Source of the DNA: Thermosphaera sp.
GTDB taxonomy: Archaea > Thermoproteota > Thermoprotei_A > Sulfolobales > Desulfurococcaceae
DNA length: 64,000 bases
Assembly (NCBI GenBank): GCA_038827615.1
Contig: JAWBNK010000001.1
Span: 992,290 to 1,056,289, forward strand
Direction: 5' to 3'
Position 1 is the stretch's first letter, and every line of letters starts with the position of its first letter. Made by a program: the position numbers and the translations under genes. This document shows, piece after piece, positions 4,548 to 41,581 of the stretch. The notes below the pieces were generated by a model. The model was not told the DNA's origin. It worked only from the letters and a program-made list of their open reading frames with translations, and made no database searches.

Positions 4548-5527
4548 GGGGAGATTTTACAGACACAAGAGGGAAAGAAATGCAACATGTGCACGCATTA
4601 ACCTTGGAGGAGGTTTCATCTCTCCTCCAATATAATGATTTAGCGAATGCTTTCTCCTCCCTTTCTGAGAAGGCTTTAGCTGGAAGAATATTGAAGAGGG
4701 TTTCAACACAATTTTATACTCTATTAGACGTTCAACGAGACATCGACGACTACTTCACTCTTAAGATAGGCGAGCTTCTCGAGGCAACAAAAGATGAAAC
4801 CGCCAAGAAAAACTTGACCTTAATACTAAATCTTTCAGAGCTCGTCAACATTGTAACGATTCTCCATAATCTAAGCATTGGGAGAAAACCTGCGATCATA
4901 TATCCCTCGGTCTTAGTAAAGAAAATCCTTCCTCCCACTGGGGAGGAGATCGATCTGACTGCGTTAAAGGAAAGCGTTAGCAAACCTTTCGGCAGACTCA
5001 TAGATCAATACGTTATCAATAAGAAGATTGAAGCAAGCGAGATTAGAAGGGCACTCAATAAATCCGTAGAGGGGGTTGACAAGATATCCAATTATAGGGT
5101 TTGGAAAGCGATCGGCTTATACCATGACATCATAGCTTTAAGACTCTGTAGAATGTTTCCAGAACTAATTGGCGAACACGTTAGCCTACTCATCCTAGAG
5201 GATAAGGCGTTTAAAGACGCCTGTAACATGGATTTGCCAGAGCTCTCTAAAACTGCTTCAGGCTATAGAAGAGTGGTTATGGAGTTTTTTGAGGCCTTGA
5301 ATGATGCTTTATCTTTCCTTGGCGGAGTTGAAGCCGTTGATGTCGCGTTGATCTTAACCATGATGAGCATCTCCAAAACACTCACAGGAAGCGTTGAAGA
5401 AAGCAGCGTTAAAAAACTGATACATCTCATGGCAAATAGTATGATTTTGAAACTAATTGCTCTCTCCATCTACACTGGTTTCTATAAAGTGGAGCTTCAG
5501 AGGTTGATGAATAAGTGGCTGAAGTAA
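4538..5527 (+). CDS. atpC: A/V-type ATP synthase subunit C
   Basis: Subunit C is the funnel that joins the central rotor to the proteolipid ring. The chain is all-helical, 329 residues, with repeats of Leu-rich helices typical of the family. It lies in the expected order between E and F. ATG at 4538 overlaps atpE. Its first 14 residues look unlike the family, so TTG 4544 or ATG 4580 (MQHVHALTLEEV) may be the true start. Sequence conservation in this subunit is low, so the call rests partly on gene order. Confidence 0.85.
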   Translation: MGLRGDFTDTRGKEMQHVHALTLEEVSSLLQYNDLANAFSSLSEKALAGRILKRVSTQFYTLLDVQRDIDDYFTLKIGELLEATKDETAKKNLTLILNLSELVNIVTILHNLSIGRKPAIIYPSVLVKKILPPTGEEIDLTALKESVSKPFGRLIDQYVINKKIEASEIRRALNKSVEGVDKISNYRVWKAIGLYHDIIALRLCRMFPELIGEHVSLLILEDKAFKDACNMDLPELSKTASGYRRVVMEFFEALNDALSFLGGVEAVDVALILTMMSISKTLTGSVEESSVKKLIHLMANSMILKLIALSIYTGFYKVELQRLMNKWLK

Positions 5528-21939: not shown

Positions 21940-25052
<3,113 letters not shown>

Positions 25053-25053
25053 A

Positions 25054-25107
25054 GCAGGATCCCATGAATTCGACTGGTACCCCTGAATGTACCAGCCCCC
25101 ACAGCGC
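25054..25107 (-). other. 5' half of pre-23S processing stem with BHB motif
   Basis: This is the partner of 21860-21915. RNA helix GUAC (25080-25077) followed by bulge CAG (25076-25074) completes the bulge-helix-bulge with GUAU/AAA on the other arm: 3-nt bulge, 4 bp, 3-nt bulge. Cutting both bulges would release pre-23S. Confidence 0.85.
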
Positions 25108-25177
25108 CCATCACCCCTTGTGGAACAGGGGTTAGCGCCTTCACACGGGCATTACACCCGTGTTGCATAATAATGGA
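25108..25177 (-). other. 16S-23S spacer core without tRNA
   Basis: Between the two processing stems the spacer holds two small hairpins: ACACGGG/CCCGTGT and CCCCT/AGGGG. No tRNA-Ala or other tRNA is encoded. Confidence 0.7.
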
Positions 25178-25227
25178 GGAGTGTACAGGCTCATCCACGC
25201 ATCGCTCTGAGCGGCTCTCCCACCGTT
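25178..25227 (-). other. 3' half of pre-16S processing stem with BHB motif
   Basis: This pairs with 26751-26799. The inner arm CTCTCCCACCGTT and outer arm GTGTACAGGCTCATCC are shared with the leader. RNA helix CCGC (25214-25211) and bulge UCA (25210-25208) make one side of a BHB. The outer helix next to it has two mismatches. Confidence 0.75.
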
Positions 25228-25240
25228 CGGCCTAATTGGC

Positions 25241-26738
<1,498 letters not shown>

Positions 26739-37061: not shown

Positions 37062-37320
37062 AAAGACGCTAGTATACTTATGCAAGTACACGCATTATGA
37101 AACTCCTTTCTCCAGACACTTCATCTCTGGAATCTCCAACTGCATAGTATGGGGTAGCATCAACCTAGAAGCGCTAAGGAAAATCCTGCCAATGGATTTA
37201 TATGAGACTTTGATAAAGGAGGGGCAGGTGATTTTAACGGAGCCGAAGCTATACGTTGATATAACAGGGCAGGAGTACAGTGGTAAGGAATACGTCGTAA
37301 TAAGAGTAATTAACCAGTGA
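37051..37320 (+). CDS. Small protein at the end of the hydrogenase-like operon
   Basis: This 89-residue soluble protein is unrecognised. It has one central helix (NLEALRKILPMDLYETLIKEG) and a beta-rich C-terminus. ATG overlaps the end of the NuoB-like gene by 11 nt, indicating co-translation, so it may be an assembly or accessory protein of the complex. It contains two Cys with no clear motif. Confidence 0.6.
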   Translation: MQSKKTLVYLCKYTHYETPFSRHFISGISNCIVWGSINLEALRKILPMDLYETLIKEGQVILTEPKLYVDITGQEYSGKEYVVIRVINQ

Positions 37321-38161
37321 AGCCGATAAATCCTATCCCTATTCCTGTAATAATTAACAGAGAGCCTCCTAAGCTAGCCGCGTCGAATCCCTCCTTATTA
37401 ATTATCGCTGATAAAACCCTTCCAACCAAAGGAGCAATAATCGTCGGCAAAGTTGAAGCCGAGACTCCCCCAACGCTCAACGCTCTAATAAATAAAGCCA
37501 TCCCAAACCCAAAGCTCAAACCCCCCGCAAAAAACCCCAGCATAAAGCCCCTGCGGGAGAAAGAATTATCTAGCACTCGTTTTTTCCTAACGGCTAATGC
37601 AAGCATGAAAACGTATAGATTTCTTAACATAGTTAAGAAAAGAACATGACCATAGTTCGTGGCAAGCCTCGAGAATATTGTACTAAAGCCCCAGAATATT
37701 GCCGTGAAAAGAGCTAGGAGATATCCTTTCACATCTCTAACATTATTCCCGCCCCCGTATATCAGGAAGACGCCTAAAATTGCCAGGAGCGTCCCGACTA
37801 GAATGTTGGAGCTGAGTTCTTCTCCGAGAAAAGCTATTGATGCCAACTGGGCGACTAGTATATACAAGTAGCCAATCGTAATCGCGTTTCCACCTCCTAT
37901 CCTCCTTATGGATTCAACATAGAAGTAGTCGCCGAAGTAGGGACCTATTAGAGCGCTGGCGAATATCAATACCAATCCAATTAAATCGGCTGTTTGAAAA
38001 GATCCTAGAAGATAAATGAAAACTAAGAGAAGAGTGAAAGCGTAGAAAGCTCTAACTCCATTAACTGTCACTGCATCAAGCCCATTACCATATCTCTTTA
38101 TCACGACCGGGTTCAGCCCCCATAAAACCCCGGCTAAAGCCCCGTACAACAATGGAATCAT
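37310..38161 (-). CDS. EamA/DMT-family transporter
   Basis: Ten membrane helices in two EamA repeats (about 1-135 and 145-283) mark a drug/metabolite-type transporter; the substrate is unknown. GALAGVLWGLNPVVIKRYG and LFTAIFWGFSTIFSRLA are the matching starts of the two repeats. A TATA-like CTTATATAAC at 38179-38188 is about 22 nt before ATG 38161, favouring it over TTG 38170. It converges with the hydrogenase operon. Confidence 0.8.
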   Translation of the reverse strand: MIPLLYGALAGVLWGLNPVVIKRYGNGLDAVTVNGVRAFYAFTLLLVFIYLLGSFQTADLIGLVLIFASALIGPYFGDYFYVESIRRIGGGNAITIGYLYILVAQLASIAFLGEELSSNILVGTLLAILGVFLIYGGGNNVRDVKGYLLALFTAIFWGFSTIFSRLATNYGHVLFLTMLRNLYVFMLALAVRKKRVLDNSFSRRGFMLGFFAGGLSFGFGMALFIRALSVGGVSASTLPTIIAPLVGRVLSAIINKEGFDAASLGGSLLIITGIGIGFIGFTG

Positions 38162-38244
38162 TGACTTCAACCCACCAGTTATATAAGATTGACGGCTAGG
38201 AATTAAAATGAAACCAAAGGTGTGTGAAGAGGTTTAACGTAAAA

Positions 38245-38254
38245 CTTTATAAAC
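38245..38254 (+). promoter_or_regulatory. Promoter of the tRNA-Asp 3' half
   Basis: CTTTATAAAC lies about 25 nt before the complementary leader that begins near 38275, the spacing expected of a TATA box. Confidence 0.6.
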
Positions 38255-38279
38255 ACTCTATCATATGGATTTCTACATC

Positions 38280-38332
38280 GGAGAAGGGCGTGCAGAGAGC
38301 CCGTGACCCGGGTTCAAATCCCGGCGGCGGCG
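38280..38332 (+). tRNA. 3' half of split tRNA-Asp(GUC), with complementary leader
   Basis: The tRNA part runs from A38 (38298) to discriminator G73 (38332): anticodon stem GCCCG (38299-38303), variable UGAC, T-stem CCGGG, loop UUCAAAU, CCCGG, acceptor CGGCGGC (38325-38331). CCA is not encoded. It is preceded by a leader GGAGAAGGGCGTGC (38280-38293) exactly complementary to the trailer of the 5' half. Leader and trailer together form a canonical bulge-helix-bulge with bulge AGA (38296-38298) and helix GCAG. A T-rich stretch at 38343-38352 may terminate it. Confidence 0.93.
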
Positions 38333-38439
38333 CTCTCTCAACTTTTCCTTTTAAACAAAAACTAGTTTACCAATGACTTTTCTTTAAACACAATAGTTGA
38401 ACACGGTTAAGAGTCCAGTGAACCAGGATTTAAGGGATT

Positions 38440-38492
38440 GGAGAAGGGCGTGCGACAGGCCCGCATACTAGGCCGGGCTATACTACGGCGGC
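38440..38492 (-). tRNA. 5' half of split tRNA-Asp(GUC), with complementary trailer
   Basis: Transcribed on the minus strand from G1 (38492): acceptor GCCGCCG, U8 A9, D-stem GUAU/GUAU with an 11-nt loop, anticodon stem CGGGC, then C32 U33 and anticodon GUC at 34-36, G37 at 38453. The 7-bp acceptor stem with the 3' half is perfect. The trailer pairs with the leader of the 3' half. The helix CUGU/GCAG and bulges CGC and AGA give cuts at 37/38. No complete tRNA-Asp can be made from either half alone. Confidence 0.93.
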
Positions 38493-38518: not shown

Positions 38519-38530
38519 GCCTTTTAAATT
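38519..38530 (-). promoter_or_regulatory. Promoter of the tRNA-Asp 5' half
   Basis: Read on the minus strand, AATTTAAAAGG lies about 27-38 nt before G1 of the tRNA, a suitable TATA position. Confidence 0.55.
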
Positions 38531-38554
38531 TAATGAGCTGTTTGACAGTATTTT

Positions 38555-38764
38555 TTATCTTTCACCAGGGATATAGTAGGGTTTTTCATCAAGCCTTATC
38601 AAACCGCTTAATCTCTTCATTCTAACCCTATAAGCGACGTACTTGTCCTCTGGACTGAATCTGGGAGGGTGAGGGACAATGAGTTCTGAGTTGCATGCAG
38701 GGCATTTATCAATTGATAACGTGTATATTCCACACTTAGGGCATTTTCTCATCAACCAGTTCAA
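38555..38764 (-). CDS. nop10: Nop10, H/ACA RNP protein
   Basis: Nop10 is the small zinc-binding protein of the H/ACA pseudouridylation RNP. CPKCGIYTL and CPAC give the four Cys ligands, and HPPRFSPEDKY is the family hallmark. TTG start overlaps the aIF2-alpha stop (TTGA), so the two are coupled; this pair is a widespread archaeal arrangement. Confidence 0.93.
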   Translation of the reverse strand: MNWLMRKCPKCGIYTLSIDKCPACNSELIVPHPPRFSPEDKYVAYRVRMKRLSGLIRLDEKPYYIPGER

Positions 38765-39558
38765 GCCTTCTCAACCTCTACGGATAGCTCTATGTGATTG
38801 CTTCTACAGCATTTTTCTAGAACCCCAATAACCTCATTCATGATAGCCTCACCCGTCTTATAGTCTTGTGCGTAGATATCGATGTTGTACTTCGGGGATC
38901 CGGTCACGTATATCTCGTGTCTAACATTTCTTTGGGAGAGAAGACTGGATGCCTCACCCAGGCATTTCCTAATTCTCTCAACCCCATCACTAGTTATCGA
39001 CCTAATCGTGAGGACTCTCCTCACCCTAACTTCCTTAACCTTAACGTGCTTCCCTGCCTCCTTCATCAACGCTTCTATCCACTCCTGGCCAATTCCCGCC
39101 TTAGACAGGACATGAGCACCCGAGGAGACTGCTTCCTCAATAGCGTACATCGGGTCTCCATACGCATCCTCAAGTTTCCAAATAACTTCTCTATACGCAT
39201 CCTCCGGCTTTTTCCCTAGTTGTTGAGAAACTATTTCAGCGATCTTACAGGCTTTAACATACCTCTTCCACCATAACAGCTTCCTTTTCCTCTCGTTATC
39301 AGCTACTTTCTTCAGCGAAACATCAACTTCTTTCTTCCTCCTATCCACTCTAATTACTTTAACAACTATCTTCTGCCCCTCCCTTACCACGTCTCTTATG
39401 TCTCTCACCCATTTCGATGCTACTTCACTCCACGGTAGGAATGCCTTCAAACCATTGTATTCATCTAAGGATACGTATGCACCGTAGTCGAATACTTCCA
39501 CCACAGTAGCGATAACGTAGTCACCTACGTTTGGTAACTCTTGCCTGGCAATCGGCAT
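38761..39558 (-). CDS. Translation initiation factor aIF2 alpha subunit
   Basis: This 265-residue protein has an N-terminal S1/OB domain (GDYVIATVVEVFDYGAYVSLDEYNGLKAFL), a helical domain (about 90-170) and an alpha/beta C-terminal domain, the layout of a/eIF2-alpha. It helps aIF2 bind initiator tRNA. Ends at the start of nop10. Confidence 0.94.
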   Translation of the reverse strand: MPIARQELPNVGDYVIATVVEVFDYGAYVSLDEYNGLKAFLPWSEVASKWVRDIRDVVREGQKIVVKVIRVDRRKKEVDVSLKKVADNERKRKLLWWKRYVKACKIAEIVSQQLGKKPEDAYREVIWKLEDAYGDPMYAIEEAVSSGAHVLSKAGIGQEWIEALMKEAGKHVKVKEVRVRRVLTIRSITSDGVERIRKCLGEASSLLSQRNVRHEIYVTGSPKYNIDIYAQDYKTGEAIMNEVIGVLEKCCRSNHIELSVEVEKA

Positions 39559-39571
39559 TTAAGACCACCTC

Positions 39572-41581
39572 TCAATCTAGACTGCTAACATCTAATCTGT
39601 ATATTAATACGACATAATTAACCTCATATGTAAGATATGATACACTTACCTTGTAGACAGGCTTAACTGAAGCGTTGATCAGCTCGAAATACCTAGTAGC
39701 GCTGGATAGCTTCTCCTGACTGTACAATATGTTGTACACGTTAAACCCTACTTGAGACAGCCCGTGGATGGTAAGAGAAGATATCAAAGTCTCAGCTCCC
39801 TTAGAGTTCCATGCAAGTGGAACCTCGTAAACCGTTCTCCCAACGCCAGTGTTGATGTATTCGAGGTAGGACATATTGATAAGGGATGCATACAACGGTA
39901 TTCTGTATAAATCTCCTACGGCTCCGTAATAGACGGTTGGCATGCCGTAGTAGTTTTGCTCCCCCGGTACTACTGCTCCAAGATATGCATTGTTGCTACG
40001 ACCGCCTGTTAGACTTATGCTGATGGCGCCAGTAACTACAACGTATGCCGTGGTAAAGTTTAATGATGATGAAATATTCTTCAATATTTCAACAGCAGTT
40101 AACTCGTCGCTCAGCAAAATCCATGAAGTAAGCCTCTTATATTCGAGACTGCTTAAGGGGTTCGACAGCATCTTTACATCCCTTACATCTCCCAAGTACC
40201 CTAGTATCCACCACGAGTAATCCCAGTATGAAACGATCAATACACTGTTATTGCTGGAGGATACAGTATCTCTCAGCGAGTCAAGGGCTTCTATCCACGC
40301 GCTCTCATTCAACAATTTCTCCCCAATACCCAAGTAAACATCAACGTCAGACATGTAGAGATTTGGTTTCGCGGCCATTATTGACGAAGAGTATAATACG
40401 TTAACTCCCACACTCCCCGCTAGAATCGTCAGTGAAAGAATCGTGAAGAATACTTTTCGCTTGAAATTCACGATATTCGTCGACGATAAAGCTACAGCGG
40501 TTAGACCTATTCCAACTAAGGGTGCAACAAAGAATCCCGCTAACACAGTTAACGTAGGATCAAAATAAGGAAGCACAAGACCCGATAGAAAGCCTATAGG
40601 GAATAATGTTTTCTCGAAAACCCTGCTCGCCAGAATCTGGCTCCTCAAGAATACTATTAAGGACATCAAGCTGAGGATGCCGAGGATCCCATAGTCCATC
40701 ACCGGATTAAATCTTCGCGAGAATACCTCCTGATAGCCTGCGGCAAGCCCGCTCCTCACCAAAAAGATAGACATCGCGGCTGTGTATATTATTGCTGATG
40801 AAGTCGTGAAGAGAATAGAACCAGGTTTTCCAACTCGTCTCTCAAGAAGCAGTACCAGCGCTAATGCTGTTAAAAGCCAGATCAGCCCTAAGGTGCATAT
40901 TGATTGTAGATATTCGAAGCCAAAGAACATTAATGGGATGACGTAAGAGGTTATCCAGGACACTAGAACATAGATGTATCGTTTACGCTCTCTCCCACTT
41001 ATCAACGCTATACTTATTGAAAACCCCATGATTACCGAAAGAGCCCAAGCGCCGGGGTATAGTATCAGCGAAAGACCATACACCAGCGGAACAGCGATGA
41101 GAACAGCCCTCCTCCCTGTTGAAACATAGATTATCGTGAGAAGCAGAGTCAAAACAGGGAGAAACATCCATGTCTGAAAACCGTAATTGCTCGCTTTAAA
41201 CCAGTAGAAGACTACGGGGACCGTTGATAGGAGAATTGTGGAGAAACCCGACACAACAGGGTTCTCAAACACATACGTGTAAATGGTAAATGACGCAATG
41301 ATAAGCAGTATCGCCCCAGTTAAGGTGAGGAATGTTGATGATACCGCCGAAATACTCGCGGCGTAATAAATTGATTTCAAAACCCAAGGACAGCCCCCCG
41401 GGAAGGTTTCACAGAATTTCTCAATACTGCTGGATTTCCTCGCAAAGGTTGAAACCCATGAAAGAGAATCGTCGGGAATACTGTACGTCGTGGAGCCCGC
41501 AAAACTGAAATACGTGTACAACACGAGTGAAACGATCAAAGCCGCAACTCCGATCAATAATCGTCTATTCAATGCAACCAC
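39572..41581 (-). CDS. STT3/AglB-related membrane protein, divergent
   Basis: This 669-residue protein has about 12 membrane helices (1-400) and an extracytoplasmic C-terminal domain with several N-x-S/T sites. That is the plan of archaeal oligosaccharyltransferases. The catalytic-pocket motif WWDYG is represented by YWDYS (residues 452-456, in SYWDYSWWI). An early DDSLSW segment may stand for the DxD-type loop. Either it is a divergent AglB or a paralogue with changed acceptor recognition. GTG start. Confidence 0.6.
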   Translation of the reverse strand: MVALNRRLLIGVAALIVSLVLYTYFSFAGSTTYSIPDDSLSWVSTFARKSSSIEKFCETFPGGCPWVLKSIYYAASISAVSSTFLTLTGAILLIIASFTIYTYVFENPVVSGFSTILLSTVPVVFYWFKASNYGFQTWMFLPVLTLLLTIIYVSTGRRAVLIAVPLVYGLSLILYPGAWALSVIMGFSISIALISGRERKRYIYVLVSWITSYVIPLMFFGFEYLQSICTLGLIWLLTALALVLLLERRVGKPGSILFTTSSAIIYTAAMSIFLVRSGLAAGYQEVFSRRFNPVMDYGILGILSLMSLIVFLRSQILASRVFEKTLFPIGFLSGLVLPYFDPTLTVLAGFFVAPLVGIGLTAVALSSTNIVNFKRKVFFTILSLTILAGSVGVNVLYSSSIMAAKPNLYMSDVDVYLGIGEKLLNESAWIEALDSLRDTVSSSNNSVLIVSYWDYSWWILGYLGDVRDVKMLSNPLSSLEYKRLTSWILLSDELTAVEILKNISSSLNFTTAYVVVTGAISISLTGGRSNNAYLGAVVPGEQNYYGMPTVYYGAVGDLYRIPLYASLINMSYLEYINTGVGRTVYEVPLAWNSKGAETLISSLTIHGLSQVGFNVYNILYSQEKLSSATRYFELINASVKPVYKVSVSYLTYEVNYVVLIYRLDVSSLD

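What the first reader, a model, noticed from the sequence alone, without database searches (positions are those of the whole stretch)
38280..38492. Split tRNA-Asp(GUC) whose halves face each other on opposite strands
The 5' half (acceptor to G37) is on the minus strand at 38492-38453 and the 3' half (A38 to G73) on the plus strand at 38298-38332. The acceptor (7 bp), anticodon (5 bp) and T stems are perfect, and the anticodon is GUC. The leader of the 3' half and the trailer of the 5' half are exact complements (GGAGAAGGGCGTGC as a direct repeat at 38280 and 38440). They form a canonical bulge-helix-bulge: helix CUGU/GCAG, bulges CGC and AGA, cutting at 37/38. Each half has its own TATA element. 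Split tRNAs are known from Nanoarchaeum, Caldivirga and some Desulfurococcales, where halves joined in trans replace one intact gene. The proximity and inverted orientation suggest a recent split by inversion of a half of an intron-containing gene.
Basis: partly seen in the sequence, partly recalled or inferred. Interest (0 to 1): 0.92.

Follow-up and report, generated by a model that had tools for sequence, protein, structure and literature searches.

The report
Split tRNA-Asp gene, Thermosphaera species
This heat-loving archaeon makes its only aspartate transfer RNA from two separately transcribed half-genes that face each other on opposite strands; the arrangement was published in 2011 for its sister species, but relatives searched here carry a precisely inserted, apparently mobile intron at the same spot, which gives a concrete idea of how such genes become split.

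Summary
The window lies in a third Thermosphaera species. Its only detectable tRNA-Asp(GUC) is encoded as two halves converging on opposite strands (5' half 38492-38453 minus, 3' half 38298-38332 plus), joined at 37/38 by a 12-14 bp stem. This was published for T. aggregans (Chan et al. 2011, PMC3218864), whose coordinates 41001(+)/41160(-) I reproduce exactly. All three available Thermosphaera genomes share identical halves, stem arms and a TATA-like element before each half, while the spacer diverges. None has an intact copy. It is a new member of a known kind, not a discovery.

Three additions go beyond the paper. (1) Comparison with Desulfurococcus mucosus shows a local flip of the eIF2a-Nop10-tRNA operon plus inversion of the 3' half beside an EamA gene. 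(2) In three families of the same order, tRNA-Asp carries a 448-567 nt intron at exactly 37/38 with a LAGLIDADG-like ORF; one is a clean insertion relative to a near-identical empty site, and another shares its stem with the Aeropyrum split gene. (3) A second genus of the family has an apparently unreported distant split. The likely history is mobile intron, then long-stem intron, then split gene. No transcript data exist for this genome.

The parts
38453..38492 (-). [quoted passage not shown]
   Evidence: identical in T. aggregans (G027) and Thermosphaera sp. 3507 (G028)
38440..38452 (-). Trailer of the 5' half, CACGCCCTTCTCC: 5' arm of the annealing stem / former intron arm
   Evidence: invariant in three species while the spacer diverges
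38280..38297 (+). Leader of the 3' half, GGAGAAGGGCGTGCAGAG: 3' arm of the annealing stem plus the BHB strand GCAG-AG
38298..38332 (+). [quoted passage not shown] no encoded CCA)
38333..38341 (+). Trailer of the 3' half, CTCTCTCAA. G73+CTCTCT is complementary to AGAGAGC across the 37/38 junction, so the free 3' half can fold on itself
   Evidence: invariant in three species; 9 bp in the separate genus g9
38241..38252 (+). TATA-like element AAAACTTTATAA in front of the 3' half (predicted start near 38275-38280)
   Evidence: conserved in three species
38520..38531 (-). TATA-like element AAATTTAAAAGG in front of the 5' half
   Evidence: conserved AAATTTAAAA in three species
38342..38439 (.). Spacer between the two convergent units; mostly diverged between species (81-120 nt between mature halves)
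38555..38764 (-). Nop10p gene, neighbour on the 5'-half side
   Evidence: PF04135, E=5e-25
38761..39558 (-). eIF2-alpha gene, upstream neighbour of Nop10
   Evidence: PF07541, E=1e-28
37310..38170 (-). EamA-type transporter gene, divergent from the 3' half; in D. mucosus it lies at the other end of the eIF2a operon
   Evidence: (PF00892, E=1.5e-32)

Best explanation
A genus-wide split tRNA-Asp(GUC) gene, orthologous to the published Thermosphaera aggregans one. Each half is transcribed from its own promoter. The 5' half's trailer anneals with the 3' half's leader to form a bulge-helix-bulge at 37/38. The tRNA splicing endonuclease cuts both strands and RtcB joins 37 to 38. Shown here: gene anatomy, absence of an intact gene, conservation in three species, presence of the enzymes. 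Inferred: transcription, annealing, cleavage and ligation. Its most likely history is a BHB intron at 37/38 in the eIF2a-Nop10-tRNA operon. A rearrangement then broke the gene inside the intron loop, which keeps both stem arms, inverted the 3' half and left it divergent from an EamA gene, with its own promoter.
For: Exact halves and complementary arms. Same convergent order in three species, with invariant halves, arms and TATA elements against a diverged spacer. The only other Asp/Glu-type genes are Glu(UUC) and Glu(CUC), also in G027 and G028. Two splicing endonuclease genes and RtcB are present. D. mucosus has TM-tRNA-Nop10-eIF2a-669aa gene-EamA(+)-hydrogenase-like genes; Thermosphaera has TM-669aa-eIF2a-Nop10-5'half / 3'half(inverted)-EamA(+)-hydrogenase-like genes, so the outer flanks stayed in place. 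RT-PCR and northern evidence exists for the analogous A. pernix gene (PMC3218864).
Against: No RNA data for this organism. The nearest-neighbour model prefers a longer helix that eats into the 5' bulge over the canonical BHB by about 7 kcal/mol. The assembly is 6 contigs, so an intact copy in a gap cannot be strictly excluded here, although the two complete sister genomes also lack one. The rearrangement order is reconstructed from few genomes, and the nearest Desulfurococcus genes have no intron.
Confidence: 0.95

Rival explanations
1. Decayed tRNA-Asp fragments left by an integration or rearrangement, with an intact functional gene elsewhere.
For: tRNA fragments at integration sites are common in this order (PMC3218864 reports six in A. 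pernix and one in T. aggregans).
Against: No intact Asp gene in G000, G027 or G028. Both halves, both arms and both TATA elements are invariant across three species while the spacer is not.
Confidence: 0.02
2. One long-intron or read-through gene, or a misassembly, rather than two transcripts.
For: In A. pernix a rare read-through precursor was amplified (PMC3218864).
Against: The halves lie on opposite strands, so no single transcript can contain both in sense. The arrangement is the same in two independent complete genomes.
Confidence: 0.01
3. Origin by mobile-intron decay (a rival on history, compatible with the mechanism above): an intron with a LAGLIDADG-like ORF inserted at 37/38 of tRNA-Asp, lost its ORF but kept its long stem, and a later break in the loop created the split. 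This would apply to Aeropyrum, Thermosphaera and genus g9 independently.
For: Three tRNA-Asp 37/38 introns of 448, 451 and 567 nt in three families carry homologous ORFs, one of them frameshifted. G014 versus G012 is a precise 448-nt insertion between nt 37 and 38 with flanks about 98% identical. The G054 ORF intron shares the arms CCTCCGCCCC/GGGGCGGAGG with the Aeropyrum-type adjacent splits. Short introns with the same arms as the ORF intron occur in close relatives.
Against: No ORF remnant in Thermosphaera. Its arms are no more like the same-family ORF intron than like Aeropyrum's (12/18 versus 14/18), and Desulfurococcus has no intron. The ORFs match Pfam LAGLIDADG_3 only below its cut-off, and neither a single-sequence model nor a fold search confirmed the fold.
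Confidence: 0.45
4. Ancient split ('split first'): the two-piece gene is ancestral and intact genes in relatives are fusions.
For: Proposed in the literature for Nanoarchaeum split tRNAs (Di Giulio, cited in PMC3218864).
Against: Split genes are scattered among intact ones: two separate groups in the family's eIF2a tree plus Aeropyrum in another family, with unrelated arms and different genomic layouts.
Confidence: 0.02

Closest known systems
Split tRNA-Asp(GUC) of Thermosphaera aggregans M11TL (Chan, Cozen and Lowe 2011)
   Same: Same gene, same cut at 37/38, convergent halves, next to Nop10-eIF2a, identical half and arm sequences.
   Different: Different species; spacer 120 nt instead of 85 nt.
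[quoted passage not shown] 2011)
   Same: Same tRNA, same junction, two promoters, GC-rich annealing stem.
   Different: Halves adjacent on the same strand, unrelated stem sequence, different family; independent origin.
Split tRNAs of Nanoarchaeum equitans, Caldivirga maquilingensis and Staphylothermus
   Same: Half-genes with complementary leader and trailer and a BHB junction.
   Different: Other tRNAs or junctions, mostly distant halves, several per genome in Nanoarchaeum and Caldivirga.
Archaeal BHB introns with LAGLIDADG genes (known from rRNA genes, PMC4496867)
   Same: BHB-flanked intron carrying a homing-endonuclease-like ORF; the kind of element found here in tRNA-Asp of three relatives.
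   Different: In tRNA-Asp at 37/38 instead of rRNA; none in the window itself.

Membership tests
Archaeal split (trans-spliced) tRNA genes | tRNA encoded in separate pieces that together give a full cloverleaf | tested here: met
   joined sequence equals intact tRNA-Asp of relatives
Archaeal split (trans-spliced) tRNA genes | Complementary trailer and leader beyond chance | tested here: met
   13-nt exact complement, 0 of 5000 shuffles
Archaeal split (trans-spliced) tRNA genes | BHB motif at the junction | tested here: inconclusive
   Canonical hBHBh' can be drawn with all pairs standard; the energy model prefers an extended helix
Archaeal split (trans-spliced) tRNA genes | No intact gene for the same anticodon | tested here: met
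Archaeal split (trans-spliced) tRNA genes | Separate promoter for each piece | tested here: met
   TATA-like elements conserved upstream of both halves in three species; sequence evidence only
Archaeal split (trans-spliced) tRNA genes | Splicing endonuclease and RtcB ligase in the genome | tested here: met
   Two PF01974 genes, one PF01139
Archaeal split (trans-spliced) tRNA genes | Joined mature tRNA observed in RNA | not testable with these tools
   No RNA data; shown for A. pernix in PMC3218864
Orthology with the T. aggregans split tRNA-Asp | Same neighbours and orientation, same arms | tested here: met
Homing BHB intron (proposed ancestor) | ORF of the LAGLIDADG family inside an intron with an empty-site counterpart | tested here: inconclusive
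   Met for insertion (G014/G012); ORF family only sub-threshold in Pfam; not present in the window genus

The most novel reading that the evidence does not exclude
Split tRNA-Asp genes of this order are repeated relics of one kind of mobile element. A BHB intron with a LAGLIDADG-like endonuclease gene homes into position 37/38 of tRNA-Asp; its long terminal stem survives loss of the ORF; and any break in the loop (promoter gain in Aeropyrum, inversion in Thermosphaera, relocation in genus g9) turns cis- into trans-splicing. In the inverted and distant splits, the 3' half also carries a trailer complementary to its own junction (7 bp in Thermosphaera, 9 bp in g9), which would keep the free half closed until it meets its partner.
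Probability: 0.4. Interest if true: 0.75.

Novelty: new member of a known kind. Interest (0 to 1): 0.5.

Why it matters
The locus itself extends a published case from one species to a genus and dates the split before the genus radiated. The wider comparison matters more. Chan et al. (2011) suspected a viral or mobile agent that targets the same position of the same tRNA, without a candidate. The intron with an endonuclease-like ORF found here at exactly that position, with an empty/occupied pair, is a candidate that can be tested, and it bears on whether split tRNAs are ancient or derived.

Tried and rejected
ARAGORN and Rfam on the window: nothing, as expected for a split gene. The best intact look-alike at G000:C1:195815 (96% identical) is Glu(UUC), and the one at 81034-81143 is Glu(CUC) with an intron. 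Rfam lists 45 tRNAs above its cut-off but is not a full census: I did not identify initiator Met or Trp in it, so absence of Asp rests on the direct searches. Viral contigs hold no copy of the 5'-half/trailer junction and no relative of the intron ORF; phage records hold none either. The structure model of the ORF was of middling confidence (pLDDT 68) and the PDB fold search gave nothing meaningful. NCBIfam and PHROGs were uninformative. A single inversion with one breakpoint in the tRNA does not give the observed order (it would leave the 3' half on the TM-gene side), so at least two steps are needed. Flipping via the AGAGAGC/GCTCTCT inverted repeat was considered and rejected, because it would not carry the leader along.

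Full report
WHAT IS THERE. The minus strand from 38492 to 38453 reads GCCGCCGTAGTATAGCCCGGCCTAGTATGCGGGCCTGTCG (tRNA-Asp nt 1-37), followed by CACGCCCTTCTCC. The plus strand reads GGAGAAGGGCGTGCAGAG followed by AGCCCGTGACCCGGGTTCAAATCCCGGCGGCGGCG (A38-G73) at 38298-38332. The two halves converge. Acceptor, anticodon and T stems are perfect. The 13-nt exact complement between trailer and leader was not reached in 5000 shuffles.

NO INTACT COPY. A whole-genome search with the joined tRNA finds the two halves at 100%, Glu(UUC) at 96% over 74 nt and Glu(CUC) interrupted by an intron; the remaining hits are weaker and partial matches to other tRNAs. A pattern search with up to three mismatches finds exactly three Asp/Glu-type 5' parts in this genome and in each of the other two Thermosphaera genomes. 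The assembly is 99.98% complete in 6 contigs. Two splicing endonuclease genes and one RtcB gene are present.

WHOSE GENOME, AND IS IT KNOWN. Two congeners are held. G027 (1,316,595 bp) is T. aggregans M11TL by size, and its half positions 41001(+) and 41160(-) agree to the base with Table 1 of Chan et al. 2011. G028 (1,305,106 bp) is Thermosphaera sp. 3507 by size. The window genome is a third species (eIF2-alpha 81-84% identical). The published T. aggregans gene is split at 37/38, convergent and next to Nop10 and eIF2a. So the window holds an ortholog of a known split gene. I found no paper in the library describing it in strain 3507 or in this species.

CONSERVATION. Aligning the three species, both halves, both arms, a TATA-like element before each half (AAATTTAAAA before the 5' half, AAAACTTTATAA before the 3' half) and the 3' trailer CTCTCTCAA are invariant, while the spacer (81, 85 and 120 nt) is largely diverged. 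This fits two separately transcribed, selected half-genes.

HOW THE REARRANGEMENT LOOKS. Desulfurococcus mucosus (G002, size confirmed) has the order TM(-), intact tRNA-Asp(-), Nop10(-), eIF2a(-), a 669-aa-type membrane gene(-), EamA(+), then four genes including hydrogenase-like ones (names from reading, not tested). All three Thermosphaera have TM(-), membrane gene(+), eIF2a(+), Nop10(+), 5' half(+), 3' half(-), EamA(+), the same four genes. The outer flanks are in place, so the operon was flipped as a block and the 3' half turned round next to EamA. Because both stem arms survive, the break probably lay in the loop of an intron and not at 37/38 itself. The order of steps is inference.

A CANDIDATE AGENT. 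Surveying about 200 genomes of the order and 63 named stretches shows tRNA-Asp(GUC) repeatedly interrupted at 37/38. Three introns are large and carry homologous ORFs with a LAGLIDADG-like motif (F[IV]AGL..AEG.FG): G014 (448 nt, same family as Thermosphaera), G054 (567 nt, the Aeropyrum family) and G079 (451 nt, a third family, ORF frameshifted). Pfam LAGLIDADG_3 matches two of them just below its cut-off (20-21 against 22.5 bits). G012, of the same genus as G014, has the empty site: flanks of 98.9% and about 98% identity, and a 448-nt insertion exactly between nt 37 and 38. Short introns with the same arms (36 and 49 nt) occur in close relatives. In the Aeropyrum family the G054 ORF intron and the adjacent-split genes (A. 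pernix G064, G106, and the new candidates G131, G191, G196) share the arm CCTCCGCCCC/GGGGCGGAGG. I did not find prior reports of such ORFs in archaeal tRNA introns in the library, which is not proof of absence. For Thermosphaera the link is weaker: its arms match the same-family ORF intron at 12 of 18 positions, no better than other arms, and no ORF remnant is present.

OTHER SPLITS. Genus g9 of the same family (G017 = MAG SKYB35, JANXDZ010000001.1; G018 = CALIML010000005.1) has its only tRNA-Asp as halves 33.5 kb apart on opposite strands, or on different contigs, with a TATA-like element before the 3' half and a long annealing stem. On an eIF2-alpha tree, split genes need two separate changes in the family (the tRNA-Asp status of G020 and G037, drawn as intact, is actually unknown, and G017 is a long branch). 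With Aeropyrum this makes at least three origins at the same nucleotide.

A POSSIBLE LATCH. In all three Thermosphaera, G73 plus the trailer (GCUCUCU) is complementary to AGAGAGC, which spans the 3' splice site. In g9 the match is 9 bp (GUAGAGAGC/GCUCUCUAC). The free 3' halves fold on this stem. Only two of about seventy unsplit genes reach 7 or more, one being the intact Desulfurococcus G001 gene with 8, so this is suggestive, not established; Aeropyrum lacks it.

VERDICT. Observation confirmed and interpretation right. The locus is a new member of a known kind (the T. aggregans split tRNA-Asp, conserved through the genus). The novelty lies in the comparative setting, chiefly the precise mobile-looking intron at the same position.

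Noticed in passing
L129/L211 (G014:C494, intron about 4910-5357 minus), L126 (G054:C8:157655-158221), L217 (G079:C1, 451-nt intron): tRNA-Asp(GUC) introns at 37/38 carrying homologous LAGLIDADG-like ORFs in three families; the G079 copy is frameshifted.
   Followed up: partly
L210 (G012:C68) versus L211 (G014:C494): Empty and occupied site: exact 448-nt insertion between nt 37 and 38 of tRNA-Asp, flanks about 98-99% identical.
   Followed up: yes
L119, L121, L141 (G017 = SKYB35) and L120, L122, L157 (G018): A second genus of the family with a split tRNA-Asp(GUC), halves 33.5 kb apart on opposite strands or on different contigs; apparently unreported.
   Followed up: partly
L123 (G131), L124 (G191), L125 (G196), L128 (G106): Aeropyrum-type tRNA-Asp genes with 118-187 nt between the halves, TATA-like sequences in the gap and the same GC-rich arms; candidate adjacent splits.
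   Followed up: partly
window 38294-38339: The 3' half's trailer is complementary to its own splice junction (7 bp; 9 bp in genus g9), so the free half can close on itself.
   Followed up: partly
L213 (G001, Desulfurococcus): The intact tRNA-Asp has a trailer GCTCGACA complementary to TGTCGAGC at its anticodon loop/junction (8 bp).
   Followed up: no
L136 (G011:C91): tRNA-Glu(UUC) with a 37/38 intron whose arms resemble the tRNA-Asp introns of relatives, suggesting intron spread between Asp and Glu genes.
   Followed up: no
G000:C5:1-500 (L078): Small contig C5 carries a second tRNA-Cys(GCA) besides the one on C1 and another interrupted tRNA; it may be a foreign contig in the assembly.
   Followed up: no
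window 21964-26737: 16S and 23S rRNA genes on the minus strand with full-length Rfam matches; no tRNA found between or beside them.
   Followed up: no
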